Source of the DNA: Bacteroidales bacterium
GTDB lineage: Bacteria; Bacteroidota; Bacteroidia; Bacteroidales; UBA932
Assembly: GCA_017527625.1 (NCBI GenBank)
Contig: JAFXPV010000011.1
Location: forward strand, 1 to 28,922
Length of the DNA stretch: 28,922 bases
Direction: 5' to 3'
Shown here: positions 1 to 28,922 of the stretch, in pieces
Layout: the number at the start of each line of letters is the position of its first letter
How positions within the stretch are numbered: position 1 is the first letter of the stretch
Translations under genes and position numbers: made by a program
The notes under the pieces: model-generated
What the model was told of the DNA's origin: nothing
The model's database searches: none
The model's input: only the letters and a program-made list of their open reading frames with translations

Positions 1-1727
1 AAGAAATTATCCTTGACCGGATTCTGGCCGGCAACCGTGTAAAGACCGGCCACTTCCATACCGCCCGCGCTAACGCGGAACTTCTCCCTGTGGAATTCCA
101 GTCCGGCATAGGCGGTGATTTCAGGCGCCCCGACAACCGGGTTGCGCATTTTGAGCCAGCTGCCGTTGGTGACGAAGTTAAGGCTGCCGCTTATGTGCCA
201 GCGGAGTTCCAGTTCTACGCCCGAGTTTTCGATGGGGCCTGTGTTGACATTGCGGGGCATACCGTTGACCATCTGGGTCTGGATCATATTGCGGCCCTTG
301 AGGTAGAACACGTTCAGGCCGTATGTAACATAGTCTCCTGCAGGAGCCTTCCAGGCCAGTTCGTAGTTCATTATGCGCTCCGGCTCAAGGTCAGGGTTTG
401 CAGGACGGAACAGGTACATATCTTTGATGGTCGGCCTGCGGAAGCCCTTGCTTACCATAGCCTTCAGTTCGCCTTTGCCGATGCGGAATGCCAGACCGCC
501 CTGAGGCACGAGTTCCAGACCGGTCTTTGAATGGTTGTCAGCCCTCAGTCCGAGGTCGACGGTCAGCCAGCTGGCAACGTCCTGACGGAAATCGACGTAA
601 CCGGCAATCTCGTTCTCGGTCTTGTCGGCCATCGGGGCCAGGTTCTCACCTGTCGCAATGACCTGGTTCCAGGCCTTTCCGTGGATGCTCTGCCAGTCGA
701 AACCGACTGTGGTGGTGTTACCCTTGAAAAGGCCGAAGCTCTGCCAGGCCGAAACGCCTGCAAGCGCATCTTCGCTGCGGAACCAGTTTGCCTGGGGAGC
801 TGCGCCTTCGGCGTGGCCGTCATTGATCTTGTGGTTGCCGAAGTTGTAGTAGAAGCTTATGGCGCCGTCCGTCTTGTCGTAGTGGTTCTCGACGGCTGCC
901 GAAGCCACTCCGCGGGTGATCCACTGGTCGGCATCGAACAACGGCGCGTTCGTGGCGCCCGGATATGAAGAGTTGAAGTGTGTGATGTCTACGTCGGCAT
1001 AGGCGCTCCAGTTGTCCGAGAACTGGTAGCCGATCTTGCCGTAACCTCCGTACTGCTCGAAGCCCATCCGGGGACGGTGGTTGTTGCTGCGGGCATACTG
1101 GCCTGAAACGACGCTGCTGAAGCGGCCTTTCTTGATGCGGTTGCTGAGCACGCCTTTGAATGTGCCGAAACTTCCTGCACCGAGGTCGAGATCTGTGTGG
1201 ACGCCGTCTTCAAGTGACTTGCGGGTTATGATGTTTACTACTCCGCCCATCGCATTGCTGCCGTAGAGCACCGATGCCGGACCGCGGAGCACTTCCACGC
1301 GCTCGGTCATCAGTGTCTGGTATGAGTCTGAGATCGGATGGCCGAAGATGCCCTGATACTGGGGATGTCCGTCGATAAGCACCATCATCTGCCCTGAACC
1401 GCCGGCAAGGCCCCTGATGCTGATGCCGCCGGCAGCTCCGGTGCTGACGCCGTAGCCCAGCATCGCCCTCGACGACACGAAGAGGCCGGGCACGAGTTCA
1501 TTCAACGTGGGCAGCACGTTGAGACGTTGCGGAGATGTCAGTTCGCTATGGTTCACTACGCTGATCGTCTGGGGAAGGAAACCGGAAAGGGTCCTGGTCC
1601 TGGTGCCTGTGACGACAGCCTCGTCAATATAGTTGGCGGTGGTGTCCGGCCCGGCTGTTACGGCACCTGCCGTGAATATGCTCAAAAGCAGGCCGGCCAA
1701 GGTGGCCGAAAGGGTTATGTTTTTCAT
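1..1727 (-). CDS. TonB-dependent outer-membrane receptor (3' end beyond window)
   Basis: Outer-membrane active-transport receptor energised by TonB, probably for a metal-siderophore, heme or cobalamin-type ligand; the substrate is not readable. The frame starts at ATG 1727 and stays open to the left edge, giving 575 residues without a stop. Visible parts: a signal peptide (about residues 1-26), a TonB-box-like segment EAVVTGTR near residue 38, a plug domain with ISIRGLAGG, LIDGHPQYQG and the diagnostic RGPASVLYGSNAMGGVVNII, then a beta-barrel with alternating aromatic strands. There is no N-terminal carboxypeptidase-like extension and no SusD partner, so it resembles the classical CirA/FepA/BtuB type and not a SusC glycan importer. 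It is divergent from an AraC-type regulator 79 bp away, the usual arrangement for regulated siderophore receptors. Only the last barrel strands should be missing. Confidence 0.93.
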   Translation of the reverse strand, partial: MKNITLSATLAGLLLSIFTAGAVTAGPDTTANYIDEAVVTGTRTRTLSGFLPQTISVVNHSELTSPQRLNVLPTLNELVPGLFVSSRAMLGYGVSTGAAGGISIRGLAGGSGQMMVLIDGHPQYQGIFGHPISDSYQTLMTERVEVLRGPASVLYGSNAMGGVVNIITRKSLEDGVHTDLDLGAGSFGTFKGVLSNRIKKGRFSSVVSGQYARSNNHRPRMGFEQYGGYGKIGYQFSDNWSAYADVDITHFNSSYPGATNAPLFDADQWITRGVASAAVENHYDKTDGAISFYYNFGNHKINDGHAEGAAPQANWFRSEDALAGVSAWQSFGLFKGNTTTVGFDWQSIHGKAWNQVIATGENLAPMADKTENEIAGYVDFRQDVASWLTVDLGLRADNHSKTGLELVPQGGLAFRIGKGELKAMVSKGFRRPTIKDMYLFRPANPDLEPERIMNYELAWKAPAGDYVTYGLNVFYLKGRNMIQTQMVNGMPRNVNTGPIENSGVELELRWHISGSLNFVTNGSWLKMRNPVVGAPEITAYAGLEFHREKFRVSAGGMEVAGLYTVAGQNPVKDNF

Positions 1728-1744
1728 ATTTTTGAACCTTTTTG

Positions 1745-1752
1745 TAACTTTG
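1745..1752 (+). promoter_or_regulatory. Putative -7 element (TAACTTTG) for the AraC-type regulator gene
   Basis: TAACTTTG fits TAnnTTTG. It lies 4 bp from the opposing -7 of the receptor gene, and together they form a near-palindrome with arms CTTTG and CAAAG at 1748-1761. The start codon is 54 nt further on. One bound regulator could therefore cover both promoters. Confidence 0.45.
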
Positions 1753-1756
1753 TGCG

Positions 1757-1764
1757 CAAAGATA
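1757..1764 (-). promoter_or_regulatory. Putative -7 element (TATCTTTG) for the TonB receptor gene
   Basis: TATCTTTG on the minus strand fits the Bacteroidota -7 consensus TAnnTTTG and ends 29 nt before the receptor ATG, similar to the spacing at other genes here (23-29 nt). No good -33 TTTG is visible at 19-20 bp. Confidence 0.5.
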
Positions 1765-1806: not shown

Positions 1807-2652
1807 ATGTCCAATATTTCCTCTGCGAACGCAAAAGTATTCCTTTGTCCCCAGGACCTGCCCTCTCCCGCCGGATTCTACGGCAGCCACCACATTCACT
1901 TTATTTGTTTTTCCGGGGGAGGCTCCTTTGTCTGCGACGGTGCCAGGCACAGCTTCGGGGGCAATGACCTTGTTATCCTCCAGGGAGACTCCGGATGCAC
2001 CGGGCTGGTCTTTTCCGACGACTTCAGCGGCAAGGCCCTGGCTGTGCCCAGAGGCTTTCTGCACAACGCCCACAACGGCAACGTATGGTCGACGAGCGGA
2101 TTCCTGCAGACCAAGGCCCATCCGGTGACCCACCTTGATGCCGATGAGAAGGAGCTGCTGCTGTCGGACATAGCAAGGATAGAGGAACGGCTCTGCCGCA
2201 CAAGCGACTTCGGCAGGCAAAGCCTCTACCACTGCTTCCAGGTGCTTATGTACGACATCTGGGACATTTACGACGACAAGGCCGTATCCAGCAGGCTGAC
2301 CGGAAGCAATGACGCCGCATTTGTGTTTATGAGGTTCCAGGAGCTGCTGAAGGCACACTGCAACAGCGAGAGGACCGTTGCGTGGTATGCAGGGAAGCTG
2401 AACATCACCCCGCGCAAGCTGAGCAGGGTGTGCCTTGATGCCAGCGGGTCCGGAGCCAGCGACTGGATCAACCACTACACCACCCTGCGTGTACGCGAGC
2501 TGCTCGAAAGTTCAGACCGCAGCCTCGAAGACATCTGCGACGAAATGCACTTCTCCAGCAGGTCGTACTTCACGCGCTATGTGGCAAAGACCCTGGGGGC
2601 GACACCATCGGATTACCGGAAGGCCTTCAGGGCCGAAGGGCGACAACAATGA
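1807..2652 (+). CDS. AraC/XylS-family transcriptional regulator
   Basis: A 281-residue DNA-binding regulator. The C-terminal ~100 residues hold the two helix-turn-helix units of the family: the first around VAWYAGKLNITPRKLSRVC, the second around LEDICDEMHFSSRSYFTRY, followed by the typical GATPSDYRK ending. The N-terminal half has a cupin-like stretch (HIHFICFSGGGSFVCDG) suited to binding a small ligand or effector. The start at 1807 is chosen because it follows the -7 element and retains the whole cupin-like region; the next Met is over 100 codons downstream. The gene is divergent from a TonB receptor, which it probably controls in response to the transported ligand. That link is inferred from position only. 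Confidence 0.9.
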   Translation: MSNISSANAKVFLCPQDLPSPAGFYGSHHIHFICFSGGGSFVCDGARHSFGGNDLVILQGDSGCTGLVFSDDFSGKALAVPRGFLHNAHNGNVWSTSGFLQTKAHPVTHLDADEKELLLSDIARIEERLCRTSDFGRQSLYHCFQVLMYDIWDIYDDKAVSSRLTGSNDAAFVFMRFQELLKAHCNSERTVAWYAGKLNITPRKLSRVCLDASGSGASDWINHYTTLRVRELLESSDRSLEDICDEMHFSSRSYFTRYVAKTLGATPSDYRKAFRAEGRQQ

Positions 2653-2672
2653 ACCATATTTCCATATTTTGC

Positions 2673-2680
2673 TATATTTG
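2673..2680 (+). promoter_or_regulatory. Putative -7 element (TATATTTG) for the small barrel gene
   Basis: TATATTTG is a full match to TAnnTTTG and lies 24 nt before ATG 2705, just after the araC-type stop. It supports separate transcription of the following gene and the choice of 2705 as its start. Confidence 0.55.
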
Positions 2681-2704
2681 CGCCGCTTTTTAAAGACACA
2701 TACT

Positions 2705-3373
2705 ATGCAAAAATTAATCTTCGTTATTTCATTCGCTTTACTGACAGTTCTCGGAGTTTCAGCCCAGGATTACGAGAAATCCTATTTCGAGGCTGTGAGC
2801 AATGTCAGGTTAGGATATGCCGGCATCGCCTCATCATCTGATTCACATCTCAAAGGTGGCTTTGACTTTGGTTTCAATATTCTGGAGGCAGGTGTCAGAC
2901 CCTACAAGAACGGCCAGATCAGCCTCGGTGCAGATTTAAATCTTGACTTTTTCAATGCAGCTGAAAGCTATTACTTCCTTTCAGCAGCCCACAAAACTGC
3001 CATCGCACCTTCAATGGGAGTGTTCAACAAGGTAAGGAGCTCTCGTCTTGAGGCCCTCACTTTCGGCTTCCCCCTGAACTTCACCAATACTTTCGGCGAG
3101 AAGCTGAAAGTGACCATCGGCGCATCTGCCAGAATCAACCTCGATGCCGGCACTTATGTAAACTATCTCAGCGCCACTGAAGACCCCACTACCACATCCG
3201 TGTCAGGAATCAAGACAAAACGCTTCTCTTACGACGTGCACCTCGCGGTTTCATACGACGGCTTCGGCATTTACGCATCCTATGTCCCGATGAAGTACTT
3301 CGAGAACGGCTACGGTCCTGACTTCAACTTCTTCACCGTAGGCGTCATCATCATCAACGACTACTCAGACTAA
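2705..3373 (+). CDS. Small outer-membrane beta-barrel protein
   Basis: A 222-residue exported protein of unknown specific function. Residues 1-20 form a signal peptide ending in VSAQ. The rest shows alternating hydrophobic/aromatic strands (for example LEAGVRPYKNGQISLGADLNLDFF and FFTVGVIII near the C-terminus), as in the 8-stranded barrels common in Bacteroidota. The in-frame region upstream is open to 2435 but overlaps the regulator gene. The true start is set by the signal peptide and by the -7 element 24 nt upstream. It stands alone between an AraC-type gene and a strong terminator. No ligand or enzymatic motif is recognisable. Confidence 0.82.
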   Translation: MQKLIFVISFALLTVLGVSAQDYEKSYFEAVSNVRLGYAGIASSSDSHLKGGFDFGFNILEAGVRPYKNGQISLGADLNLDFFNAAESYYFLSAAHKTAIAPSMGVFNKVRSSRLEALTFGFPLNFTNTFGEKLKVTIGASARINLDAGTYVNYLSATEDPTTTSVSGIKTKRFSYDVHLAVSYDGFGIYASYVPMKYFENGYGPDFNFFTVGVIIINDYSD

Positions 3374-3388
3374 TTGAGCCAGCACCAC

Positions 3389-3418
3389 AAAAAAAGCCGC
3401 GCCAGCGCGGCTTTTTTG
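3389..3418. terminator. Bidirectional rho-independent terminator
   Basis: A GC stem (GCCGCG pairing with CGCGGC, loop CCAG, 3396-3411) is flanked by an A-run on the left and a T-run on the right. It works for the barrel gene on the plus strand and for the DUF2461 gene whose stop codon is at 3419-3421 on the minus strand. Confidence 0.85.
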
Positions 3419-4102
3419 TTACATCCACTCTTCTATAGCATAATCCACCGGACGGTCCAGGTAACGGACGAAGGGGACTGCCGGCTTGAAGTCTGCGACA
3501 ACACGTTTTGCCAGATCTGGACGCAGAAGATAATCCGCAGTAACCGGCTTCATCAGCAGGAACTGTTTCAGACGGAAATACTTCGACCAGGGTTTGTCGT
3601 CGGGCCAGCCCTGGGCGGGACGTGAAAGGGCTCCGTCCCACATCACGCTCCAACCGTGGCCGGGGTTTGCGACCTTGTCGAACTGTTCCCCGTTCAGCAT
3701 TATTTCCTCGCGGACACTCTTGATGATGAGCCTTTCCTGACGCCAGATCCCGACGCAGAGAAAATAGCTGTTCTCGCCGGGCTCGATGTGAAGATAATAG
3801 CCGGGATACTGGGACTTGCGGCCGCCTTTGGCGAAATAAAGGCCGCACCAGCTTTTGTAGGGAGGATTGCCGTGGAAGCGCTGGTCCTGATAGATACGCC
3901 AGGTGATATCTTTCGGGCCGAGGCCTGCAAGGTCAGCATCAAGCTTCTCAAGCCCGGCAAGGATTTCCATACCGAGATTTTCGTAATAGCTTTTTATCGC
4001 CAGATAGAGCGGCTTGCGCTCATCAAACCATTTCTTTTCGTTGTTTTCCGCCAGTTCTGCATAGAACTGCAGCATATCGGGCATTGAAATTTGTGTCTCC
4101 AT
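3419..4102 (-). CDS. DUF2461 family protein
   Basis: A 227-residue soluble protein of the DUF2461/TIGR02453 family, whose biochemical role is unknown. Family hallmarks are the N-terminal LAENNEKKWFDERK, the central DITWRIYQDQRFHGNPPYKSW and GYYLHIEPGENSYFLCVGIW. Length is normal for the family. Two starts are possible: ATG 4102, or ATG 4084 (residue 7). The -7-like TAAATTTG ends at 4110, only 7 nt from the first but 25 nt from the second, so 4084 may be the true start. Divergent from the MgtC gene. No signal peptide or membrane segment. Confidence 0.88.
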   Translation of the reverse strand: METQISMPDMLQFYAELAENNEKKWFDERKPLYLAIKSYYENLGMEILAGLEKLDADLAGLGPKDITWRIYQDQRFHGNPPYKSWCGLYFAKGGRKSQYPGYYLHIEPGENSYFLCVGIWRQERLIIKSVREEIMLNGEQFDKVANPGHGWSVMWDGALSRPAQGWPDDKPWSKYFRLKQFLLMKPVTADYLLRPDLAKRVVADFKPAVPFVRYLDRPVDYAIEEWM

Positions 4103-4109
4103 ATAGAGA

Positions 4110-4117
4110 CAAATTTA
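4110..4117 (-). promoter_or_regulatory. Putative -7 element (TAAATTTG) for the DUF2461 gene
   Basis: Full match to TAnnTTTG on the minus strand. It lies 25 nt before the alternative start at 4084, which matches the spacing of other genes in the window. No -33 TTTG at the expected distance. Confidence 0.4.
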
Positions 4118-4171
4118 ATGAATTTGCGTATTTTTACATATTACACTTCTGACCTACAAACATTTTCTGAT

Positions 4172-4843
4172 ATGTCTCTTTCATACGACTTGATAATAAG
4201 GATACTGGTAGGCGGCGCACTCGGCGGCATCATCGGCCTCGAGAGGGAGAAAAGGGCCAAGGAGGCCGGTTTCCGCACCCATTTCCTGGTAGCATTGGGC
4301 AGCACTCTGATATCCGTCATTTCGGCTTTCGGCTATGACAAAGTCGCAGACATCATCCCCATCGCGAGATATGACCCCTCCCGTCTGGCAGCACAGATCG
4401 TTTCGGGCATCGGCTTCATAGGAGCCGGACTCATCATCTTCCAGAAGAATGTGATCCACGGCCTGACCACCGCCGCAGGACTCTGGGTGACGGCAGCCAT
4501 CGGCATAGCCTGCGGAGTGGGCCATTACGACCTGGCCATAGTCACGACCATTATGGTTCTCATCGCCCTGGAGCTCGTAATGGTCATCGACCGCAAGCTC
4601 AACAAGCGCCAGCTGACCATAACTATGAAAGCTTCGGACAAAGAGAAAATCAGCCAGTTCGTCCAGAGCGTCAAGGCTGACGGCGCAGTGCTGAGGGCAT
4701 ATGACCTCGAAGTGCTGAACGAAGGCGACGGCAAGATCTACAAAGCCGACATCGAACTCAGCACAAAGCGCATCGACTACGAAGAGCGCGTCTGGGATCT
4801 GCTGGAAGGGATGGAAGGCTCGATTATGTCTCACAAGAAATAA
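4172..4843 (+). CDS. MgtC/SapB family membrane protein
   Basis: A 223-residue inner-membrane protein of the MgtC/SapB/YhiD family, which in other bacteria is tied to growth at low magnesium, acid or host stress; its exact role here is unknown. The N-terminal ~130 residues hold several hydrophobic segments and the family signature: GGIIGLEREKRAKEAGFRTHFLVALGS, then DPSRLAAQIVSGIGFIGAG and GLTTAAGLWVTAAIG. The C-terminal ~75 residues are soluble and look like the ACT-like domain of full-length members. ATG 4172 was chosen because the first transmembrane helix begins right after it (MSLSYDLIIRILVGG); an upstream in-frame ATG would add a non-conserved tail overlapping the divergent gene. A small EF-hand/helical gene follows 23 bp downstream, probably in the same transcript. 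Confidence 0.9.
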   Translation: MSLSYDLIIRILVGGALGGIIGLEREKRAKEAGFRTHFLVALGSTLISVISAFGYDKVADIIPIARYDPSRLAAQIVSGIGFIGAGLIIFQKNVIHGLTTAAGLWVTAAIGIACGVGHYDLAIVTTIMVLIALELVMVIDRKLNKRQLTITMKASDKEKISQFVQSVKADGAVLRAYDLEVLNEGDGKIYKADIELSTKRIDYEERVWDLLEGMEGSIMSHKK

Positions 4844-4866
4844 TAAACCAATAATATCACACTGCA

Positions 4867-5193
4867 ATGAGCGAAGAATTTGACAAGAGAGACCTCAACA
4901 AGGACGGAAAAGTCACTTTAGGAGAAAAAATCGGCTATGGCATCGACGAAGCCGTCAAAGACGCCAAGGAAGTCGCCGCCAAGGTCAAGGAGAAAGCCCC
5001 GGAGAAGTTCGCCGAAATGAAGGAAGACATCAAGGAAGCTGCCGGCAAGGCTAAAGTGAAAGCTGAAGAACTCAAGGAGAAAGCCCCGGAGAAATTCGCC
5101 GAGATGAAGGCCGACATCAAGGAAGCTGCCGACAAGGCAAAGACCACGATCGACAACTTCGTCTCAAAGAAAGACGGCGAGAAAAAAGCTTAG
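4867..5193 (+). CDS. Small EF-hand / amphipathic helical repeat protein
   Basis: A 108-residue, highly charged protein with no signal peptide and no assigned family. Residues 9-20 (DLNKDGKVTLGE) match a canonical 12-residue EF-hand loop at every ligand position (D1, N3, D5, G6, V8, E12). Residues 41-63 and 70-92 are two copies of a 23-residue Lys/Glu/Ala-rich unit (KEKAPEKFAEMK...) differing at only two positions, predicted as long amphipathic helix and reminiscent of LEA or YtxH-like stress proteins. It lies 23 bp after the MgtC gene and ends 4 bp from a convergent gene. One EF-hand loop alone may bind Ca2+ or Mg2+ weakly, or dimerise to do so. A role in divalent-cation or envelope stress with MgtC is inferred from position. 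Confidence 0.75.
   Translation: MSEEFDKRDLNKDGKVTLGEKIGYGIDEAVKDAKEVAAKVKEKAPEKFAEMKEDIKEAAGKAKVKAEELKEKAPEKFAEMKADIKEAADKAKTTIDNFVSKKDGEKKA
4987..5142 (+). repeat. Two direct repeats of 69 bp inside the helical-protein gene
   Basis: Copies at 4987-5055 and 5074-5142 (period 87 bp) encode the duplicated 23-residue unit. Nucleotide identity is high, so the duplication is recent or kept similar. Confidence 0.8.
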
Positions 5194-5197
5194 GCTT

Positions 5198-6337
5198 CTA
5201 GTCCAGATACTCAAAAAAAGCAATGTCCCGGTCCACCTTCAGATGGATCCGGCGGCCGAGGTACAGCGAATAGTTGGGAGCGCTCTTGTGGACGTTCCAG
5301 TCGTGGCCTGCGTCAATCTGATACATCACCGGTATCTGCCGGTTCCCGATTTTGGAGTATATGATTCCGGGCAGTGACAGGTCCATACCCTTGTAGTCGT
5401 CAAAATCCGTAAACTGCCCCACTATGATTCCTGCGATCTCGTCCAGTTTGCCGGAGAGAAGCAGGTTCTGCATCATCCTGTCGATGGCGTAGCTGTCTTC
5501 ACCCACATCTTCTATGAAGAGGATGGCATCTTTCATATCCAGATTCATAGGCGTTCCCTGCAGGCTGTAGATCAGCGACAGGTTGCCTCCCACCAGCCTT
5601 CCGGTAGCTTCTCCTTCGCGGCAATAATAATTCGTAGTTATCGAAAGCCCCGGAGCTTCCCCGAAAAGCGCGTCGTGCAGGAAGGCCACCGAAGTCGTAT
5701 CACCTTCGATGCGGGTGGCCATCGGCCCGTGCATAGATTCCAGACCAAGATTGTTAAGAGCAATGTGCAGGGCTGTCACGTCGCTGTAGCCGACTATCCA
5801 TTTCGGGTTTTCATAGAGCGGGGTGAAATCCAGATATGGCGTCACCTGGGCAGCGCCATATCCTCCCCTGGTCGAAATCATAGCTTTGATGTCAGGGTCG
5901 TCGATCATAGCCTGGGTCGCCTTGATACGCTCTTCGAGAGTACCGTCATAACGGCCGTTCTGCTTGAAAAGGTTGTCGGCGAACTTGACCCTCAGGCCCC
6001 AGTTCTCGAACACTGACACTCCGTAAAGCAGGGCAGTGCTGTCGACGTAGTTGGAGATGCCGAAGATGCCTATGCAGTCGCCACTCTTCAGCGGTGCGGG
6101 ACGGATGTCAGGCCTGACGGCAGCAGGCGCTTCCTGCTCCTGCGCATCGTCGCTCTGAACTATAAGCGTAGTATCAATCTGTGCAGGGGCGGCAGGCGCC
6201 TCCTCCTGCTGCTCAATTTCTTCTTCAAGCGGAGTGATGTCAGTCTGGACCGGCGTTTTGTAAGGCCTCATAGCCTCTGCGCAAAGGCAGCTGCAAACCG
6301 CCAGGGCGGCAATCAGCAGGGATAGTCTCTTGTTCAT
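5198..6337 (-). CDS. Exported LD-carboxypeptidase (peptidase family S66)
   Basis: A 379-residue serine peptidase of family S66, which removes the terminal D-residue from murein tetrapeptides during peptidoglycan recycling. The catalytic triad is visible as Ser185 in GYSDVT, Glu276 in FIEDVGE and His345 in DAGHDW, with the STRGGYGA loop at 156-162. Unlike the cytosolic LdcA type, it begins with a signal peptide (about residues 1-22; Cys-rich but without a standard lipobox) and then a Glu/Gln/Pro/Ala-rich low-complexity linker (about 37-82) before the catalytic domain. It should therefore act in the periplasm. It is last in the NUDIX > nitroreductase > HAD > S66 operon and overlaps the HAD gene by 4 nt. 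An immunity-type (MccF) function is possible but not indicated. Confidence 0.9.
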   Translation of the reverse strand: MNKRLSLLIAALAVCSCLCAEAMRPYKTPVQTDITPLEEEIEQQEEAPAAPAQIDTTLIVQSDDAQEQEAPAAVRPDIRPAPLKSGDCIGIFGISNYVDSTALLYGVSVFENWGLRVKFADNLFKQNGRYDGTLEERIKATQAMIDDPDIKAMISTRGGYGAAQVTPYLDFTPLYENPKWIVGYSDVTALHIALNNLGLESMHGPMATRIEGDTTSVAFLHDALFGEAPGLSITTNYYCREGEATGRLVGGNLSLIYSLQGTPMNLDMKDAILFIEDVGEDSYAIDRMMQNLLLSGKLDEIAGIIVGQFTDFDDYKGMDLSLPGIIYSKIGNRQIPVMYQIDAGHDWNVHKSAPNYSLYLGRRIHLKVDRDIAFFEYLD

Positions 6338-6975
6338 TTCAGCATCTGAACGATATCTGTAAAACTGTCTGCAAGGAAATCAGCCCCCGCAGCCTTTAAA
6401 TCTTCGGCGGTGCCGTTGCCGTATGTCACGGCTATCGTCCTGCAACCCGCCGCACGGCCCATCAGTATGTCGAAGGGGGCATCGCCGACCATCACTGCTT
6501 CTGCAGCAGGGACATCCAGGGCTTCGAGTATGATATTCACCGGCTGGGGGTCAGGCTTGGCCTTGGTCACGTCATCAGCTCCGACGGTCATCTCAATCAG
6601 CGGAGCAAGGCCCAGCTCGGCGATGTAGCGGTCGAGGGTGTGGCGGTGGCGGCTGCTGGCTATGGCCAGTTTCATACCGCCGTCCTTCAGCTTACGCATA
6701 GTATCCAGGACGCCGGGATACAGGGTCACCGCGCCCTTCTTGTCCAGCTCGTCGAACATCCTGCGGTATGCGGCGGCATATTCTGCCTCACCCGCCTCGT
6801 CCAGCGGAATCAGGGCGCTGAAGCATTTCTCGAGAGGCAGGCCGATGACGCTGCGGTAGCGGGCTTCGCTGAGCGGCTGGCGGCCCATCGCCTTGAAGGT
6901 GGCTGCCATCGTGGTCAGGATTATACCCGTCGTGTCCCCGAGAGTGCCGTCGAAATCGAAGATTGCGAGCTTCAT
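6334..6975 (-). CDS. HAD-superfamily phosphatase (phosphoglycolate phosphatase-like)
   Basis: A 213-residue cytosolic hydrolase. Motif I is FDFDGTLGDT at residues 6-15 (nucleophile and acid/base Asp), motif II Ser is in IASSR, the motif III Lys is in AKPDPQP, and motif IV is VGDAPFDILMG. A helical cap lies between motifs I and II, as in subfamily IA enzymes such as Gph and beta-phosphoglucomutase; the substrate cannot be read. The start overlaps the nitroreductase stop by 4 nt, and the stop overlaps the S66 start by 4 nt, so translation is probably coupled. Confidence 0.9.
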   Translation of the reverse strand: MKLAIFDFDGTLGDTTGIILTTMAATFKAMGRQPLSEARYRSVIGLPLEKCFSALIPLDEAGEAEYAAAYRRMFDELDKKGAVTLYPGVLDTMRKLKDGGMKLAIASSRHRHTLDRYIAELGLAPLIEMTVGADDVTKAKPDPQPVNIILEALDVPAAEAVMVGDAPFDILMGRAAGCRTIAVTYGNGTAEDLKAAGADFLADSFTDIVQMLK

Positions 6976-7496: not shown

Positions 7497-7499
7497 ATC

Positions 7500-22376: not shown

Positions 22377-23168
22377 TTATTCTTCGAAAAGAGCGCTGTT
22401 GGAACGGTAGAACAGCGCGCACTCGTCAGGGCGGTCGGAATTCATATAGTCGATGCCCAGCGAATAGAACACGTGGTAAACCGTTTCGCTCTCGGGAGCA
22501 CCCCAGAAGCGGAGCGGTTTTCCCTGTGAATGGGCCTTGCCAACTGCATCCATTACCTTTTCCCAGCCGGCTTTGCTGCCACGGCCGCGGCCTCTCCACA
22601 GTGTATATTTATAGAAAGGAGCGCTGAACAGCGCGATGCGCTGCAGCTGCGACGGGGTGTATTCCAGTTCCAGGTTGCCGTCGAAGAAGATGAAATCAGG
22701 ATATTTGCCAAAATCGGCGGGAGCAGGCACATTGCCGGTCATCACCACCCTCACTGCGTAGGGATTCACCGCAGGGTCGAAGACGTCGCGGTGTGCCGAG
22801 AGCAGTTTCACCAGCGTGCCCAGGGTCGGCTCGGTCGTCTCCTTGATGTCGACCATCAGCTGGAGCGTCTGCTCGCTGTCCGCCCAGGCCCTGCCGCCGT
22901 TCTGACTGAACACCTGCAGCAGCGGCTGGAGATAGAGAGCCTCGAAGGTGCGTTCCGGCTTGATGTCCTTGCGGTCGTGGCTGACAAAGAGAGTGCCGTC
23001 GATGCAATAGACGTCTGCCTCCACGGAGTCGAAGCGCTCGCTGTAAGCCGCCCAGAACGGCGCCACGCGCTCGTAGTCGTTATGCGAATGCAGCAGCACC
23101 GGATTCTGTCCACGCGCACCCACAGAACAAAGCATCAGAACCGCCAGCAGTATCACCATCTTTTTCAT
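22377..23168 (-). CDS. Exported GDPD / PI-PLC-like phosphodiesterase family protein
   Basis: A 263-residue exported protein with the TIM-barrel fold of glycerophosphodiester phosphodiesterases and phosphatidylinositol phospholipase C. Residues 1-20 form a signal peptide ending in ARGQ. Active-site-like sequences are HSHNDYE (residues 28-34), VEADVY (about 50-55) and SHDRK (about 63-67). Length is normal for the Bacteroidota members. The phosphodiester substrate is unknown. Convergent with serpin 2, zero spacing. ATG 23168 lies 7 nt after a -7-like element; residue 4 (ATG 23159) is an alternative start. Confidence 0.85.
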   Translation of the reverse strand: MKKMVILLAVLMLCSVGARGQNPVLLHSHNDYERVAPFWAAYSERFDSVEADVYCIDGTLFVSHDRKDIKPERTFEALYLQPLLQVFSQNGGRAWADSEQTLQLMVDIKETTEPTLGTLVKLLSAHRDVFDPAVNPYAVRVVMTGNVPAPADFGKYPDFIFFDGNLELEYTPSQLQRIALFSAPFYKYTLWRGRGRGSKAGWEKVMDAVGKAHSQGKPLRFWGAPESETVYHVFYSLGIDYMNSDRPDECALFYRSNSALFEE

Positions 23169-23175
23169 ATCACCC

Positions 23176-23183
23176 CAAAGTTA
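23176..23183 (-). promoter_or_regulatory. Putative -7 element (TAACTTTG) for the GDPD-like gene
   Basis: Full TAnnTTTG match ending 7 nt before the ATG, implying a very short leader. No -33 TTTG at the expected distance. Confidence 0.4.
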
Positions 23184-23248
23184 ACAAATAATGCGGTAAT
23201 GGCTACACGCATCGTAAACGCGAAAGGCCGCAACAACACGGACACAAT

Positions 23249-23267
23249 TGGTTCCCTGAGGGAACCA
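23249..23267. repeat. 19-bp perfect palindrome in a purine-rich intergenic stretch
   Basis: TGGTTCCCT and AGGGAACCA flank a single G. A purine-rich run (AAAGGAGGGG, GGAAGGAGGCGAAGC) follows up to the tRNA terminator and recalls the interior of the element at 17956-18128. It is probably a decayed or partial intergenic repeat; 23184-23340 holds no gene. Confidence 0.5.
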
Positions 23268-23340
23268 TTAAAGGAGGGGTCAGATAAGGAAGGAGGCGAA
23301 GCATCCGACTGGCACGAGAAAAGCCAAACGCGCCAAAAAT

Positions 23341-23372
23341 GAGAAAAGCCGCTGAAACCAGCGGCTTTTCTC
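23341..23372 (-). terminator. Rho-independent terminator of tRNA-Lys
   Basis: A perfect 14-bp stem (23341-23354 with 23359-23372, loop 4 nt) rich in GC at its tip, with the descending arm ending CTTTTCTC on the minus strand. It begins 2 nt after the tRNA 3' end. Confidence 0.85.
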
Positions 23373-23373
23373 G

Positions 23374-23446
23374 TGACCCGTTTGGGGCTCGAACCCAAGA
23401 CCCCAGCATTAAAAGTGCTGTGCTCTACCAACTGAGCTAACGAGTC
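23374..23446 (-). tRNA. tRNA-Lys (anticodon UUU)
   Basis: A 73-nt cloverleaf. The acceptor stem is GACTCGT with ACGGGTC, the discriminator base A, and the D arm GCTCAGTTGGTAGAGC. The anticodon stem CAGCA/TGCTG encloses CTTTTAA with anticodon TTT, and the T arm TTGGG-TTCGAGC-CCCAA is intact. CCA is not encoded and must be added after transcription. Confidence 0.97.
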
Positions 23447-23465
23447 AAGACCCTTTTGGGGACTG

Positions 23466-23497
23466 CAAAAGTATGTAATCCCTTTGTAATCTCCAAA
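23466..23497 (-). promoter_or_regulatory. Consensus Bacteroidota promoter of tRNA-Lys
   Basis: -33 TTTG (23494-23497) and -7 TACTTTTG (23466-23473) are separated by exactly 20 bp, giving a start about 15 nt before the tRNA 5' end. It is the best promoter in the window and serves as the reference for the others. Confidence 0.8.
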
Positions 23498-23615
23498 TAA
23501 TATTTTTCAACTGGCCCATAGTCGAAATTAAACGGATATAAATGCTTAAAAACGGATAGAGAACTTTTCGTGGCCTACATTGCGTCCCGTAACAAAACAA
23601 ATGGAGGAAAAAGAA

Positions 23616-24692
23616 ATGAAAAGAATTGCTGCAATCTTCATCGCAGCCGCGATGATTGCCACGGCTTGCAACGTGCTGCCGGAAAATGGAAACCTACAGC
23701 CGCGCAAAGGCGGTCTGGTGCTGGGAATCGCCAGCTTCGAAATCGACGTCCCGTCCATAAAGTCTACTGTGCCTCCGGACACCAACTCATTCGTGCTGTC
23801 CGTCACCGACCTGCTCGGGAAAGTCTACTACAAAGGTCTGTACGGAGAAAGGCCTGACTCCATACTGTTGCCGGAAGGCACGTACTCTCTGTCACTGGTT
23901 TCAGCCGACTATTCCGTGCCTGCCTTCGAATCTCCCCAGTGGGGCACCGAGACCCAGGTTGACATAGTCGCCGACGAAGTCACCAAGGTGCTTCTCGAAT
24001 GTTCACAGATCAACAGCGGAGTCAGGCTGGTTTATGGAAGTCACTACCGAGAGCTGTTCGGCACCAGCCCCGTGAACATCGTGCAGGGCGACAAAAGCCT
24101 GCTGTATCCGGTCGGGGAAGACCGGTTCGCATTCTTCCCGCCGGGAGAAGCCCGCTTCGACATCGTCACGGACACGGAGACAAAACCTATCTTTAAAAGA
24201 ACTCTCCGCTCCGGCGTCAACCTGACCATCAATCTTGACGCATCGTCAAATTCAGGCGAGTCGGCATTCTCGGTGACTGTCGACACCCAGGCGACCTACG
24301 AGACCGAAGACATCATCACCGACGGAACATTCTTCGAGGAGGACGGACTGACGATGAAAACTGCTTTCTGCGTGGATTCGGCAGCGCGCCATATGGGTGA
24401 CACCGTGTGGGTGTGGGGATATATCGTAGGCGGCGACTGCACTGCCGACAACGTGAACTTCTTCACCGGCGACATCGCTTCGACCACTCATTTCGCAATC
24501 GCATCGTCGCCCACAGCTTCGAAGAGGTCGGAATGTATGGCGGTCGAGCTCAGCAAATCTGCGATGCGCGCGGAACTGAACCTCGTGGACAACCCCCAGC
24601 TCAAATACAAGAAGATTTACCTGAGGGGCAAAGTGGCCAACTATATGGGCTCTTGGCCGGGAATAAAAAATCTCTCCGAATACAAGTATTAA
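23616..24692 (+). CDS. DUF4493-like lipoprotein with C-terminal OB-like (DUF6359-type) domain
   Basis: A 358-residue surface or periplasmic lipoprotein. The signal peptide MKRIAAIFIAAAMIATAC puts the lipidated Cys at residue 18. The first ~220 residues resemble Bacteroidota DUF4493 proteins (GGLVLGIASFEID, LLPEGTYSLSLVSADY, GVRLVYG, repeated beta-sandwich strands). Residues ~270-358 resemble the OB-fold-like domain seen in DUF6359 proteins (GDTVWVWGYIVGG to KIYLRGKVANYMG). Both calls are from pattern only. ATG 23616 is chosen because of the signal peptide and a rare clear Shine-Dalgarno (GGAGG at 23603-23607). The function is unknown; relatives are often adhesion or glycan-locus lipoproteins. 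A weak -7-like TACATTGC is at 23576. Confidence 0.75.
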   Translation: MKRIAAIFIAAAMIATACNVLPENGNLQPRKGGLVLGIASFEIDVPSIKSTVPPDTNSFVLSVTDLLGKVYYKGLYGERPDSILLPEGTYSLSLVSADYSVPAFESPQWGTETQVDIVADEVTKVLLECSQINSGVRLVYGSHYRELFGTSPVNIVQGDKSLLYPVGEDRFAFFPPGEARFDIVTDTETKPIFKRTLRSGVNLTINLDASSNSGESAFSVTVDTQATYETEDIITDGTFFEEDGLTMKTAFCVDSAARHMGDTVWVWGYIVGGDCTADNVNFFTGDIASTTHFAIASSPTASKRSECMAVELSKSAMRAELNLVDNPQLKYKKIYLRGKVANYMGSWPGIKNLSEYKY

Positions 24693-24717
24693 ACGGATAA
24701 TATCCGTATTTGATTTG

Positions 24718-24725
24718 TATTTTTG
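24718..24725 (+). promoter_or_regulatory. Putative -7 element (TATTTTTG) for the CobW-type gene
   Basis: Full TAnnTTTG match, 24 nt before ATG 24750. A small palindrome (CGGAT-AAT-ATCCG, 24694-24706) sits about where -33 would be. Confidence 0.5.
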
Positions 24726-24749
24726 CCAAGAAAGAAAACGAAAGCAAAG

Positions 24750-25880
24750 ATGAATCAGAAAGAAACTCCGGTATTGCTGCTCACCGGATATCTGGGCAGC
24801 GGAAAGACCACCCTCGTAAACAGAATCCTGTCGAACAGGCCGGGCATACGCTTCGCCGTAATCGTGAATGACATCGGCGAGGTGAACATCGATGCCAGCC
24901 TGATACAGCAGGGCGGCGTGGTAAAGCAGCAGGACGACAGCCTGGTAGCCCTGCAGAACGGATGCATCTGCTGCACCCTCAAGATGGACCTTGTCAACCA
25001 GCTGTGCGACCTTATCAAGACAGGCAGCTTCGACTACATCGTCATCGAGGCCAGCGGCATCTGCGAGCCGGTTCCCATCGCGCAGACCATCTGCTCGATA
25101 CCCGGTATGCCGCCGGAGTACACAAAACGCGGAATCCCGCGCCTGGACTGCATAGTGTCTGTTGTAGATGCCTTGAGGCTCAGGGATGAATTCGCCTGCG
25201 CGAAGGACCTCACCCGAGACAACATCGACGACGAGGACATCGAGAACCTGATAATCCAGCAGATCGAGTTCTGCGACATCATACTGCTCAACAAGGTGGA
25301 CCAGGTGTCCGAAGAGGAGCTGAAGCAGATCAAGGCCGTGGTACGCGCCATCCAGCCCAGCGCCAAGGTGGTAGACTGCACGTTCGCAGACGTACCCCTG
25401 CAGGAGATACTCGACACCCACAGCTTCAACTTCGACAAGGCCAGCCTTTCGGCAGCCTGGATTAAGGAGATGGGCAAGCCGGTCGAGGATGAAGAGGAAA
25501 GTGAAGAAGAGGAGGAATACGGCATCGGCACCTTCGTGTACTATCGCCGCCGCCCGTTCGACGTCAACAAGTTCGACCGCTTCGTGATAAAGCACTGGCC
25601 TTCCAACATCATCCGCGCGAAAGGCATCTGCTGGTTCACCGACAACAACGATATGTCGTACCTCTTCGAGCAGAGCGGAAAGCAGAAACAGCTCAAGGAG
25701 ATCGGACAATGGTACGCCACAGCTCCGGCTGACGAACTCGAAGACCTGATGATGGAAGACCCTACCCTGGCAATGGACTGGGATGACGAATGTGGGGACA
25801 GGATGATAAAACTCGTGTTTATCGGACAGCATCTCGACCGCGAGAAACTGACCCAAGAACTCGATTTCTGTCTTGCCTGA
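24750..25880 (+). CDS. CobW/G3E-family metallochaperone GTPase
   Basis: A 376-residue GTPase of the G3E family (CobW/YeiR/ZNG-like), which delivers zinc or another metal to client enzymes. Walker A is GYLGSGKTT at 13-21; the metal-binding CxCC motif is C72-I-C74-C75 (NGCICCTLK); IEASGICEP at 99-107 and NKVD at 181-184 complete the GTPase core. A run of acidic residues (about 246-256) links it to the C-terminal CobW_C domain (about 258-376). The start at 24750 is preferred over an upstream in-frame TTG because the promoter ends at 24725. It precedes uxaC by 61 bp but uxaC has its own promoter. The client is unknown. Confidence 0.92.
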   Translation: MNQKETPVLLLTGYLGSGKTTLVNRILSNRPGIRFAVIVNDIGEVNIDASLIQQGGVVKQQDDSLVALQNGCICCTLKMDLVNQLCDLIKTGSFDYIVIEASGICEPVPIAQTICSIPGMPPEYTKRGIPRLDCIVSVVDALRLRDEFACAKDLTRDNIDDEDIENLIIQQIEFCDIILLNKVDQVSEEELKQIKAVVRAIQPSAKVVDCTFADVPLQEILDTHSFNFDKASLSAAWIKEMGKPVEDEEESEEEEEYGIGTFVYYRRRPFDVNKFDRFVIKHWPSNIIRAKGICWFTDNNDMSYLFEQSGKQKQLKEIGQWYATAPADELEDLMMEDPTLAMDWDDECGDRMIKLVFIGQHLDREKLTQELDFCLA

Positions 25881-25903
25881 TATTCAGAATTTGAATAAAT
25901 TTG
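25872..25903 (+). promoter_or_regulatory. Putative promoter of uxaC (CTTG-N20-TAAATTTG)
   Basis: -7 TAAATTTG at 25896-25903 is a full match; CTTG at 25872-25875, 20 bp upstream, is one base off the -33 TTTG. The -33 lies inside the end of the CobW-type gene. Leader of about 32 nt. Confidence 0.55.
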
Positions 25904-25941
25904 TGAGAATCGATCAATAATAATCTAAAAATACGAATACA

Positions 25942-27345
25942 ATGACCCCGTTCATCACAAAAGACTTTATGCTGACAACGGATGCTGCCCGCGAGTTGTA
26001 TCACGAGAGCGCCGAGAAGATGCCCATCATCGACTACCACTGCCACCTGGTTCCCCAGATGATCGCCGAGAACACCCAGTTCAAGAATATGACTGAGGTA
26101 TGGCTTGGCGGCGACCACTACAAGTGGCGTGCAATGCGAGGCAACGGCGTTCCTGAAGAATACATCACCGGCGGCAAATCCGACTGGGAGAAATTCGAGA
26201 AATGGGCCGAAACCCTGCAGTACGCAATGCGCAACCCGCTTTATCACTGGTCTCACCTTGAGCTTTCACACATCTTCGGCATCGACAAGGTCCTCAATCC
26301 TTCGACTGCCCGCGAAATCTACGAAGAGTGCAACGCGAAGCTTGCCACCGAGGACTTCCGCGCCCAGAAACTGATGACTGGCTGCAATGTCGAGACCGTC
26401 TGCACCACCGACGATCCTGTTGACGACCTGAGATACCACAAGCAGATTGCCGAGCATCCCTTCGGAGTCAAGGTTCTTCCCGCCTGGAGGCCCGACAAGG
26501 CTCTCGGTGTTGACAATCCCAAGGCTTACAAGGAGTATATCGGCAAGCTCGAGAAAGCTGCAGGTATGGAAATCAAGAGTTACCGCGACCTGCTCGAGGC
26601 TCTTCAGAAACGCCACGATTTCTTCGAGAAGATGGGCTGCCGGCTGAGTGACCACGGAATGGACACCTTCCACGCTGCCGACTATACGGCGACTGAAATC
26701 AACCGTATCTTCAAGAACGCCCTCGCCGGCAAGAAGCCGACTGCGAAGGAGTTCGACAAGTTCCAGAGCGCTTTGCTGTTCGACTTCGGCGTGATGGATG
26801 CCCGCAGCGGCTGGACCCAGCAGTTCCACGTCGGTCCGATCCGCAACAACAACACCAAGATGTTCAAGAAGCTCGGTCCCGACACCGGTTTCGATGCTAT
26901 CAACGACCTGCCGATGGCAGAGGCCGGCCACAAGTTCCTGGACCGTCTCGCCAAGAACGATGCTCTTGCCAAGACCATCCTCTACTGCCTCAACCCGAAG
27001 GACAACGAGGTGCTCACAGTGATGGCTTACACCTTCAACGACGGCACGGTTCCCGGCAAAATGCAGTTCGGAAGCGGCTGGTGGTTCCTCGATCAGGAAG
27101 ACGGTATGCGCAAGCAGCTCAACGCGCTGTCTGCCCTCGGCCTGCTCAGCAGGTTCGTAGGTATGCTCACCGACTCCCGCAGTTTCCTGTCATATCCCCG
27201 CCACGACTACTTCCGCCGCATTCTCTGCGACGTGCTCGGCAAGGATATCGAAGACGGCAAGCTGCCCCGCAGCGAGATGCCGTTCATCCACAAGATGGTG
27301 TCAGACATCTCTTACAACAACGCAAAGAATTACTTCGGATTCTAA
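25942..27345 (+). CDS. uxaC: Uronate (glucuronate/galacturonate) isomerase
   Basis: A 467-residue cytosolic amidohydrolase-superfamily enzyme converting D-glucuronate to D-fructuronate and D-galacturonate to D-tagaturonate. The metal-binding DYHCHL (His33, His35) sits near the N-terminus. AMRGNGVPEEYITG, CTTDDPVDDL, SDHGMDTF, QFHVGPIRNNN and MLTDSRSFLSYPRHDYFRRILC are diagnostic for UxaC, and the length matches. With kdgK, eda and uxuA 8 kb upstream it supplies the first step of hexuronate use. It is transcribed alone, from its own promoter to a strong terminator. Confidence 0.95.
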   Translation: MTPFITKDFMLTTDAARELYHESAEKMPIIDYHCHLVPQMIAENTQFKNMTEVWLGGDHYKWRAMRGNGVPEEYITGGKSDWEKFEKWAETLQYAMRNPLYHWSHLELSHIFGIDKVLNPSTAREIYEECNAKLATEDFRAQKLMTGCNVETVCTTDDPVDDLRYHKQIAEHPFGVKVLPAWRPDKALGVDNPKAYKEYIGKLEKAAGMEIKSYRDLLEALQKRHDFFEKMGCRLSDHGMDTFHAADYTATEINRIFKNALAGKKPTAKEFDKFQSALLFDFGVMDARSGWTQQFHVGPIRNNNTKMFKKLGPDTGFDAINDLPMAEAGHKFLDRLAKNDALAKTILYCLNPKDNEVLTVMAYTFNDGTVPGKMQFGSGWWFLDQEDGMRKQLNALSALGLLSRFVGMLTDSRSFLSYPRHDYFRRILCDVLGKDIEDGKLPRSEMPFIHKMVSDISYNNAKNYFGF

Positions 27346-27368
27346 GGATCTGCGGCATAACAAAAATA

Positions 27369-27402
27369 GAGGGGCGGAAGATTTCCGTCCCTCTTTTATT
27401 TT
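27369..27402. terminator. Bidirectional rho-independent terminator after uxaC and GH92
   Basis: An 11-bp stem with one G-T wobble (27369-27379 with 27383-27393, loop GAT) is followed by TTTTATTTT on the plus strand and preceded by an A-rich run that gives a T-run on the minus strand. Confidence 0.85.
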
Positions 27403-27416
27403 GTGGAGCCCGGCAG

Positions 27417-28922
27417 CTACTGCTCCCGCGAGAATGAATACGGCAGATCCTCCGGCGCAGTGCCTCGTTTGTAATTCGGCTTGTCGGACATCTCAACCTT
27501 GACACTGCCGCCCTTTATCAGGTCGAAGTGGTCGAAGTAGTTCTTCGTATAGGGCTTGCCGCGGAAGGTCATAGCGTCGATATAGTAATTGTCCGGGCCG
27601 TTGTCAGGCGCATCTATAGTCAGGTCGTTGCCGTTCTCGAAGTGGAGTACGGCTTTTTTGAACAGCGGGGTTCCAATAATATACTGGTTCGTGCCGGGAG
27701 CCACCGTGTAGAAACCAAGAGCGGACAGCACATACCAGGCAGAGGTCTGGCCGTTGTCCTCGTCGCCGCAGTAGCCGTCGGGAGTGGCGCTGTAGAGCTT
27801 GTCCATCGTCTCCCTCACCCAATGCTGCGTCTTCCAGGGCTCGCCCGCATAGTCATAGAGATAGATCATATGCTGTGCAGGCTGGTTGCCGTGGGCGTAG
27901 TTGCCCATATTCATCACCTGCATCTCGCGGATTTCGTGAATCACACCGCCGTAGTAGCTTTCGTCGAAGAGCGGCGGCACATTGAACACAGAGTCCAGCA
28001 TAGTCACGAAATTGTCCCGGCCGCCCATAAGGTCGATGAGGCCCTGCGGATCGTGGAATACGCTCCAGGTGTAGTGCCAGCTGTTGCCCTCGGTGAAGGC
28101 GTCGCCCCATTTCAAGGGAGAGAAAGGAGCCTGGAAACTGCCGTCGGCATTGCGGCCGCGCATCAGGCTGCTCTCCTTGTCGAAAACGTTCTTGTAGTTG
28201 AGAGCCCGCTTCGCATAGAGCTGCACTTCGTCATCCGGTCTTCCGAGAGCCTTCGCGACCTGCAGGATGCACCAGTCGTCGTATGCATATTCCAACGTAC
28301 GGGCCACGCTCTCGTTGATGCCGACATCGTACGGCACATAGCCCAGGTCGTTGTAGTACTGCCAGCCGAGACGGCCGGTTGAGCTCACCCGCGGGTGGAC
28401 GGCGTTGCTGCCGTGGAGCAGGCCTTCGAACATCACCTCAGGCTCTGCCACCTTCAGTCCTTTCATAAAGGCATCTGCAAGCACCGCTGCGGAGTTGTTG
28501 CCGACCATACAGCCGCGGTGGCCGGGAGAAGCCCACTCAGGGAAGAAGCCGCTCTCCTTATATACATTGACCAGGCCCTCCTGCATCTGCAGTGCCTCGG
28601 TGGGATACATCAGGTTGACGAACGGGAACAGGCTGCGGAAGGTATCCCAGAAGCCTGTGTCGGTATACATATAGCCCGGTAGCACTTCGCCGTTGTAAGG
28701 GCTGTAGTGCATCACCTGCCCGTCTGCCGTTATTTCATAGAACTTACGGGGGAAGAGTAGCGCACGGTAGAGACACGAATAGAAGGTGCGCATATTGTCC
28801 ACATTCTCGCTGCTGACCTCGATGCGTCCCAGAACGTCGTTCCACGCAGCCTTGCCGGCAGCCGCCACTTCATCGAAGTTCCTGTCGCCAAGCTCCTTGA
28901 GGTTCTGGAGAGCCTGCTCGTC
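27417..28922 (-). CDS. Glycoside hydrolase family 92 alpha-mannosidase (5' end beyond window)
   Basis: The frame is open from the right edge to the stop at 27417, giving the C-terminal 501 residues of a GH92 exo-alpha-mannosidase; intact enzymes are about 720-780 residues. These Ca2+-dependent inverting enzymes trim alpha-mannose from N-glycans or yeast mannan in the periplasm or at the surface. Family blocks: YTDTGFWDTFRSLFP, EGLVNVYKESGFFPEWASPG, DAFTEGNSWHYTWSVFHDP (with the Glu thought to be the catalytic acid), YAHGNQPAQHMIYLYDYAG and GYCGDEDNGQTSAWYVLSALGFY (with candidate base Asp residues). A GTG at 28868 is internal. The signal peptide and N-terminal beta-sandwich lie outside the window. 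Confidence 0.95.
   Translation of the reverse strand, partial: DEQALQNLKELGDRNFDEVAAAGKAAWNDVLGRIEVSSENVDNMRTFYSCLYRALLFPRKFYEITADGQVMHYSPYNGEVLPGYMYTDTGFWDTFRSLFPFVNLMYPTEALQMQEGLVNVYKESGFFPEWASPGHRGCMVGNNSAAVLADAFMKGLKVAEPEVMFEGLLHGSNAVHPRVSSTGRLGWQYYNDLGYVPYDVGINESVARTLEYAYDDWCILQVAKALGRPDDEVQLYAKRALNYKNVFDKESSLMRGRNADGSFQAPFSPLKWGDAFTEGNSWHYTWSVFHDPQGLIDLMGGRDNFVTMLDSVFNVPPLFDESYYGGVIHEIREMQVMNMGNYAHGNQPAQHMIYLYDYAGEPWKTQHWVRETMDKLYSATPDGYCGDEDNGQTSAWYVLSALGFYTVAPGTNQYIIGTPLFKKAVLHFENGNDLTIDAPDNGPDNYYIDAMTFRGKPYTKNYFDHFDLIKGGSVKVEMSDKPNYKRGTAPEDLPYSFSREQ

What the first reader, a model, noticed from the sequence alone, without database searches (positions are those of the whole stretch)
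1..28922. The tetranucleotide CATG appears to be absent from the whole window
Reading the plus strand line by line and across line joins, I found no CATG (its own reverse complement, so this covers both strands). A random sequence of this length and roughly 55% GC should hold about 110. ATG is common but always preceded by A, G or T. Codons before Met are forced to T-ending or other forms (GATATG, AATATG, TTTATG, CTTATG, GGTATG), although these genes otherwise prefer C-ending codons. Nearly every CAT is followed by A, C or T. This spans all genes, both strands and intergenic DNA, so it is a genome-level pressure. The usual explanation would be long exposure to a CATG-cutting (NlaIII-type) restriction system; a repair- or mutation-driven process is another possibility. 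Total avoidance in 29 kb is extreme.
Basis: partly seen in the sequence, partly recalled or inferred. Interest (0 to 1): 0.8.

Follow-up and report, generated by a model that had tools for sequence, protein, structure and literature searches.

The report
Chromosome stretch purged of CATG
A 29-kb piece of a gut bacterium's chromosome has lost every copy of the four-letter word CATG, most likely because a CATG-cutting defence enzyme in its lineage kept damaging its own host; the principle is known, but the completeness and the species-to-species switching are striking.

Summary
Confirmed: 0 CATG against 111-140 expected. All three reading frames and non-coding DNA are clean, and each frame escapes at its own wobble base, which points to selection against the word rather than one mutation type. 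The window comes from an uncultured ruminant-gut Bacteroidales related to Cryptobacteroides; its genome is not held, so its own enzymes cannot be inspected. In relatives the depletion spans many contigs but is patchy: six genomes are at or below 0.13 of expectation, others near 1, and one close relative (about 84% DNA identity) is at 0.82. Among palindromes only CATG, GATC, sometimes GGCC, and the generally rare CTAG are repeatedly purged. In 398 genomes of the family, 4 carry an ICEA/NlaIII-family nuclease gene beside a D12 methyltransferase; all 4 are depleted, against 20 of 92 sampled genomes without it (Fisher p=0.003, not corrected for kinship). No ICEA gene passed the cut-off in 26 genomes of the window's likely genus, so the link to this window is inference. 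Best reading: long self-restriction by a CATG-specific type II R-M system, resident or recently lost. Such avoidance is published. New member of a known kind.

The parts
1..28922 (.). The whole window: no CATG on either strand (the word is its own reverse complement)
   Evidence: 0 observed, 124 expected by second-order Markov; 140 +/- 12 in shuffles
1807..28868 (.). 26 predicted coding stretches (8,401 codons) in which CATG is avoided in all three frames by synonymous codon choice
   Evidence: 0/100, 0/39 and 0/53 in the three frame contexts; synonymous shuffle 119.5 +/- 7.7
23344..27343 (+). Block aligned to four close relatives (83.0-88.6% pairwise identity): 23 columns hold CATG in at least one relative, none in the window
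   Evidence: L003 holds 20 of the 23; L001, L002 and L013 hold 4 each
23373..23446 (-). tRNA-Lys(TTT), the only RNA gene found; also without CATG
   Evidence: zero count
25942..27345 (+). uxaC (glucuronate isomerase), the gene used to fetch relatives and build the tree
   Evidence: Pfam UxaC E=1.7e-202; 80 loci; tree

Best explanation
The lineage carried, for long, a CATG-specific type II restriction-modification system in which nuclease and methyltransferase act independently. Any lapse in methylation lets the nuclease cut the host's own CATG sites, so point mutations that remove a site are favoured. CATG is never obligatory in coding DNA: NNC|ATG, CAT|GNN and NCA|TGN all have synonyms. The chromosome can therefore be purged with little change to its proteins. 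The most likely enzyme is an ICEA/NlaIII-family HNH nuclease paired with a D12 adenine methyltransferase, as found in four depleted relatives. Shown: the absence, its form, its spread over many contigs and its patchiness in relatives, and the gene module in four depleted relatives. Inferred: that the window's own lineage has or had such a system, and that the relatives' ICEA proteins cut CATG. The odds given here cover both a resident and a recently lost system, so they overlap with the first two rivals.
For: Word-level selection: in the window's codon choice each reading frame escapes at a different base of the word. Of 52 coding CATG site comparisons with four relatives, 40 show no amino-acid difference in the window and 12 do. 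Spread: in G006 148 against 1366 over 20 stretches (336 kb), while its low-GC mobile stretch (GC 0.40) still has 60/100, as expected for newly arrived DNA. Patchy gain and loss: on a UxaC tree of 48 rows the depleted label (14 rows) needs 9 changes, at least 6 forced by supported branches; shuffled labels need 12.2 on average, so it is also somewhat clustered. The close relative G003 is at 267/324. Words below 0.35: CATG in 13 of 72 measurable loci, GATC 21 of 73, GGCC 5 of 72, CTAG 11 of 12, every other palindrome 0 or 1. ICEA PF05315 over cut-off in 4 of 398 family genomes, full length at E=1.3e-119 in G274. All 4 depleted: G274 89/255, G376 3/66, G370 7/76, G368 0/32, against 20 of 92 ICEA-negative genomes below 0.4; Fisher p=0.0032. 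The island D12 methyltransferase scores 434-452 bits in the three carriers where it is whole, is split over two contigs in the fourth, and no other genome of these 398 exceeds 309 bits. Literature: avoidance follows orthodox type II systems and can be a trace of lost ones (PMC4687349, abstract and passages).
Against: No ICEA over cut-off in 43 genomes, 61 or 26 of the window's likely genus (one weak match below cut-off in G205). 20 of 92 ICEA-negative genomes are depleted all the same. In depleted G005, G009, G016 and G025 none of five DNA-methyltransferase Pfam families passed its cut-off. G041 keeps both island methyltransferases and the EVE-like gene but has no ICEA between them, yet sits at 15/172. 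The association rests on 4 carriers, two of them near-twins (ICEA 97% identical), and is not corrected for kinship; at a cut of 0.3 it is 3 of 4 and p=0.024. 12 of 52 site comparisons involve an amino-acid difference. In H. pylori, which has a CATG methyltransferase, CATG is not depleted (O/E 1.25 by base composition, PMC3849833, passage), so carriage of a CATG system does not always deplete; most iceA1 genes there are said to be broken (PMC13340068, passage).
Confidence: 0.75

Rival explanations
1. The pressure is a CATG-specific type II system that is not of the ICEA/NlaIII family, still resident in the window's lineage.
For: ICEA over cut-off in 0 of 26 genomes of the likely genus, although the word is at 0 in the window and at 0.20-0.33 in G001, G002 and G012.
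Against: None of the four methyltransferase families searched in 43 genomes tracks the depletion; ICEA is the only candidate found whose carriers are all depleted. Assembled genomes may lack mobile islands: two of four ICEA islands run into contig ends.
Confidence: 0.25
2. Trace only: the system has been lost and the depletion is a fading scar.
For: Close relatives span 0.20 to 0.82, as expected during recovery; published for other systems (PMC4687349, passages). G041 has the module without ICEA.
Against: Zero in 29 kb leaves no sign of recovery in the window itself; relative G003, 84.6% identical in the aligned block, has recovered or was never purged, so scars may not last long.
Confidence: 0.3
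3. A mutational or repair process, such as methylcytosine deamination or Vsr-type repair, destroys CATG.
For: Vsr genes occur in relatives G001 and G002 (Pfam PF03852); NNC|ATG sites mostly became TATG (30 of 40 third-position cases).
Against: Vsr-type repair (T to C, recalled) would turn CATG into CACG/CGTG, but that pair is 64.3 per 10 kb in the window and 61.6 in the undepleted relative, while TATG/CATA is 97 against 68. Deamination does not readily explain CAT|Gxx 0/39 and NCA|TGx 0/53, where the escape is at the T or the A.
Confidence: 0.03
4. Selection on RNA: an endoribonuclease or translation effect against CAUG in transcripts.
For: The word is palindromic, so DNA and RNA pressures look alike in genes.
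Against: Non-coding DNA is also clean, 0 of about 15, though part of it may be transcribed; I know of no RNA process (recall) that would switch between sister species. Not tested further.
Confidence: 0.02
5. Artefact of library making or assembly, for example NlaIII digestion.
For: None found.
Against: Depleted relatives come from several hosts and studies (horse, goat, sheep, yak records), and undepleted species occur beside them.
Confidence: 0.005

Closest known systems
Restriction-site avoidance in genomes with orthodox type II R-M systems (Rusinov et al. 2015, PMC4687349)
   Same: Loss of a short palindromic site, tied to type II systems, stronger with longer residence, and left behind as a trace after loss (abstract and passages read)
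   Different: Here the word is wholly absent from 29 kb and the state switches between close species; the terms CATG and Bacteroid- have 0 occurrences in that paper's main text
NlaIII of Neisseria lactamica and iceA1-hpyIM of Helicobacter pylori
   Same: The nuclease found in four depleted relatives is a member of Pfam ICEA, whole in three and cut at a contig end in one, beside a D12 methyltransferase; iceA1 is described as NlaIII-like and next to hpyIM (PMC13340068, passages)
   Different: In three of the four islands a second, N4/N6-class methyltransferase precedes ICEA (the fourth is cut), and in one an EVE-NucS-like gene lies between ICEA and the D12 gene; H. pylori shows CATG O/E 1.25
GATC avoidance in other Bacteroidales
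   Same: Near-total loss of a restriction palindrome: 0/55 in L071, 2/74 in L050, 2/76 in L066
   Different: Other word, probably other enzymes; not followed here

Membership tests
Orthodox type II R-M site avoidance | A palindromic restriction word far below expectation on the whole genome | tested here: inconclusive
   0/124 in the window; the window's own genome is not held; met in stretches of relatives, e.g. G006 148/1366 over 336 kb
Orthodox type II R-M site avoidance | A cognate nuclease and a separate methyltransferase in the same genome or in close kin | tested here: inconclusive
   Found in 4 depleted genomes of the family but over cut-off in 0 of 26 of the likely genus; the window's genome is not held
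Orthodox type II R-M site avoidance | The word is avoided in all frames and in non-coding DNA | tested here: met
ICEA/NlaIII family (the relatives' nuclease) | Full-length match to the ICEA profile | tested here: met
   G274 residues 2-223 to profile 1-218 of 218, E=1.3e-119; G376 and G370 1-218; G368 113-218 only, cut at a contig end
ICEA/NlaIII family (the relatives' nuclease) | Adjacent adenine methyltransferase | tested here: met
   D12-class gene beside ICEA in all four islands, split over two contigs in G376; that it methylates adenine in CATG is not tested
ICEA/NlaIII family (the relatives' nuclease) | Cleavage of CATG | not testable with these tools
   Needs an enzyme assay; all four carriers are CATG-depleted at a cut of 0.4
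ICEA/NlaIII family in the window's own organism | ICEA gene in its genome | not testable with these tools
   Genome not held; the window's ORFs of 100 aa or more were listed and ten of them scanned against Pfam, with no ICEA among those ten
Vsr-type repair bias | Loss through T-to-C at the third base (excess of CACG/CGTG) | tested here: not met
   CACG+CGTG 64.3 against 61.6 per 10 kb in an undepleted relative; 1 of 52 coding cases became CACG and none CGTG

The most novel reading that the evidence does not exclude
Some of these bacteria meet a CATG-cutting nuclease chiefly by owning almost no sites rather than by methylating them, so that the purged chromosome itself is the immunity. A companion EVE/YTH-like reader fused to a NucS-like nuclease, seen inside one ICEA island and left in place of ICEA in one strongly depleted genome, could carry on the pressure after ICEA is gone.
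Probability: 0.07. Interest if true: 0.8.

Novelty: new member of a known kind. Interest (0 to 1): 0.4.

Why it matters
The group offers natural pairs of close species in which the same genes hold the normal number of CATG in one and none in the other, so the speed of purging, of recovery and the lifespan of a restriction system could be measured. It also gives a way to infer a bacterium's past or present restriction enzymes from DNA alone, useful for uncultured gut species.

Tried and rejected
Methyltransferase families as tracers: PF02086 rings in 6 of 43 genomes and 18 of 54, PF01555 in 14 of 43, PF07669 in 30 of 43, 17 over cut-off, PF00145 in 18 of 43, PF02384 in 15 of 39; none follows depletion. 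The G006 PF07669/PF02384 hit is in a low-GC mobile stretch and looks like a type I modification gene (type I by reading the neighbouring genes, recall). The G025 PF01555 hit looks like an rRNA methyltransferase (by eye).

ICEA as a tracer gave nothing at first in 43 and in 61 genomes, and its control genomes did not ring in those searches nor. It came to light only because the EVE-NucS-like neighbour in G041 led to G274. The second match of that search, G211 (28% identity over part of the protein), is also depleted (29/148), but its island is a different, C5-methyltransferase one; I do not count it. G041 was not among the 398 genomes (its own protein found no exact match there), so those 398 are a sample, not the whole family.

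Mobile carriers: ICEA in plasmids gave 1 distant partial match; ICEA and the D12 methyltransferase gave no relative in viral contigs. PDB sequence search: none for ICEA, one weak match for the EVE-NucS-like protein (E=0.038). Rows dropped before the Fisher test: 5 of 97 ICEA-negative genomes with fewer than 10 expected CATG. The ICEA-carrier stretches include the islands; without them G274 is 65/197, G376 1/42, G370 7/43 and G368 0/14 (added up). Paper searches for CATG avoidance: (6 papers listed; 1; 0 papers with CATG, Bacteroidales, methyltransferase and motif), for Cryptobacteroides with restriction-modification (2 listed, not opened); this does not prove absence from print.
Full report
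Observation. CATG occurs 0 times in 28,922 bases; 124 are expected from its sub-words and 140 +/- 12 from dinucleotide shuffles. Among the 16 four-base palindromes only CTAG is also very low (2/31), and CTAG is low in 11 of the 12 relatives' loci where it could be measured.

How it is avoided. In 26 predicted coding stretches (8,401 codons) the word is missing in each frame: NNC before ATG 0 of 100 (73 expected from the rest of the window), CAT before Gxx 0 of 39 (14 expected), NCA before TGx 0 of 53 (9 expected). Shuffling synonymous codons gives 119.5 +/- 7.7. Non-coding DNA (3,865 bases) holds 0 of about 15. In the window's codon choice the base that gives way is the wobble base, which is a different base of the word in each frame. 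Compared with four close relatives, 52 coding CATG sites of theirs are something else in the window: 40 without and 12 with an amino-acid difference in the codons touched (some sites are shared by relatives, so these are not 52 events, and the direction of change is not known). This fits selection against the word better than one mutational path.

Where it comes from. The ten window genes scanned are ordinary chromosomal ones. The nearest UxaC relatives (96-97% identical) are metagenome-assembled Bacteroidales from goat, sheep, water buffalo and yak. The four lie in one genus list of 26 genomes, taken here as the window's likely genus; G002 also appears in the family list drawn around G006, whose genus list holds Candidatus Cryptobacteroides onthequi (L005 = G004). 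The window's own genome is not held.

Relatives. CATG observed/expected in 80 loci ranges from 0.02 to 1.27. In G006, 20 stretches (336 kb) hold 148 against 1366; 11 of them hold 0-3, while a low-GC mobile stretch holds 60/100. Relative G003, 84.6% identical to the window over a 4-kb block, holds 267/324. In that block 23 alignment columns have CATG in at least one relative: 20 of them in G003's copy (L003), 4 each in L001, L002 and L013, none in the window. On a UxaC tree of 48 rows the depleted state needs 9 changes, at least 6 forced by supported branches, against 12.2 for shuffled labels (a single-gene tree). Of 97 ICEA-negative genomes sampled (43 reached through UxaC loci, 54 from the genus of G006), 92 were measurable and 20 fall below 0.4.

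Which words. Counting loci with at least 30 expected, those below 0.35 are 13 of 72 for CATG, 21 of 73 for GATC, 5 of 72 for GGCC, 1 each for CCGG, AGCT and GTAC, 11 of 12 for CTAG and none for the other nine palindromes. GATC reaches 0/55. So the window is the most complete case seen here of a common pattern.

The enzyme. Five methyltransferase families do not follow the depletion. The strongly depleted G041 holds an island with a 262-aa N4/N6-class methyltransferase, a 383-aa protein and a D12 methyltransferase. A search with the 383-aa protein led to G274, whose island has relatives of the same three genes plus a 226-aa gene that matches Pfam ICEA over its full length at E=1.3e-119. ICEA is the family of H. 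pylori iceA (that Pfam ICEA also covers NlaIII is recall); iceA1 is described as NlaIII-like and beside a methyltransferase gene (PMC13340068, passages). ICEA passes its cut-off in 4 of 398 family genomes. All 4 are depleted: 89/255, 3/66, 7/76 and 0/32. Of 92 ICEA-negative genomes 20 are below 0.4, Fisher p=0.0032; with a cut of 0.3 it is 3 of 4 against 16 of 92, p=0.024. The carriers are few, two are near-twins (ICEA 97% identical), and kinship is not corrected for, so this is support, not proof. The island D12 methyltransferase stands apart at 434-452 bits in the three carriers where it is whole and is split over two contigs in G376; the next genome scores 308. The islands of G368 and G376 run into contig ends, a reason why assembled genomes may miss them.

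What is not explained. The window's likely genus (26 genomes) has no ICEA over cut-off, although G001, G002 and G012 are at 0.20-0.33. Depleted G005, G009, G016 and G025 have no match over cut-off in any of the five methyltransferase families. Their residual CATG sites (for example 21 in 64 kb of G005) would need protection if a nuclease were active. Either the islands are missing from the assemblies, or the systems were lost recently, or the enzymes belong to families not searched.

Verdict. The best explanation is long self-restriction by a CATG-specific type II system, most plausibly ICEA/NlaIII-like, present now or until recently. Avoidance of type II sites, also as a trace of lost systems, is published (PMC4687349, abstract and passages). 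What is notable is the completeness, the switching between close species, and a candidate module in relatives.

Noticed in passing
L203:5503-6651 and L316:10609-11748: A 379-383 aa protein in the R-M islands of G041 and G274: EVE/YTH-like reader domain followed by a NucS-like nuclease domain; in G041 it sits where ICEA is missing.
   Followed up: partly
L195:11542-15781 and L196:12111-18821: Relatives G001 and G002 carry different defence islands beside similar flanking genes: Vsr + MutH-like + C5 methyltransferase + HNH in one, Vsr + two C5 methyltransferases + an AAA/McrBC-like pair in the other.
   Followed up: partly
L324, L325, L244 (G082): GATC is as low as or lower than CATG: 3/69, 2/76 and a ratio of 0.04, so two words are purged in one genome.
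   Followed up: no
19869-22376: Two serpin-like genes in tandem (Pfam serpin E=1e-91 for the first; the second is similar by eye).
   Followed up: no
10194-14493: Cluster of a di-haem oxidoreductase, an imelysin-type protein and a probable outer-membrane protein, perhaps for iron uptake (Pfam for the first two; the rest by eye).
   Followed up: no
L320:6583-10561 (G211): Three proteins without a Pfam match below E=0.1 beside a C5 methyltransferase with an N-terminal helix-turn-helix, in a CATG-depleted genome: a possible unrelated R-M system.
   Followed up: partly
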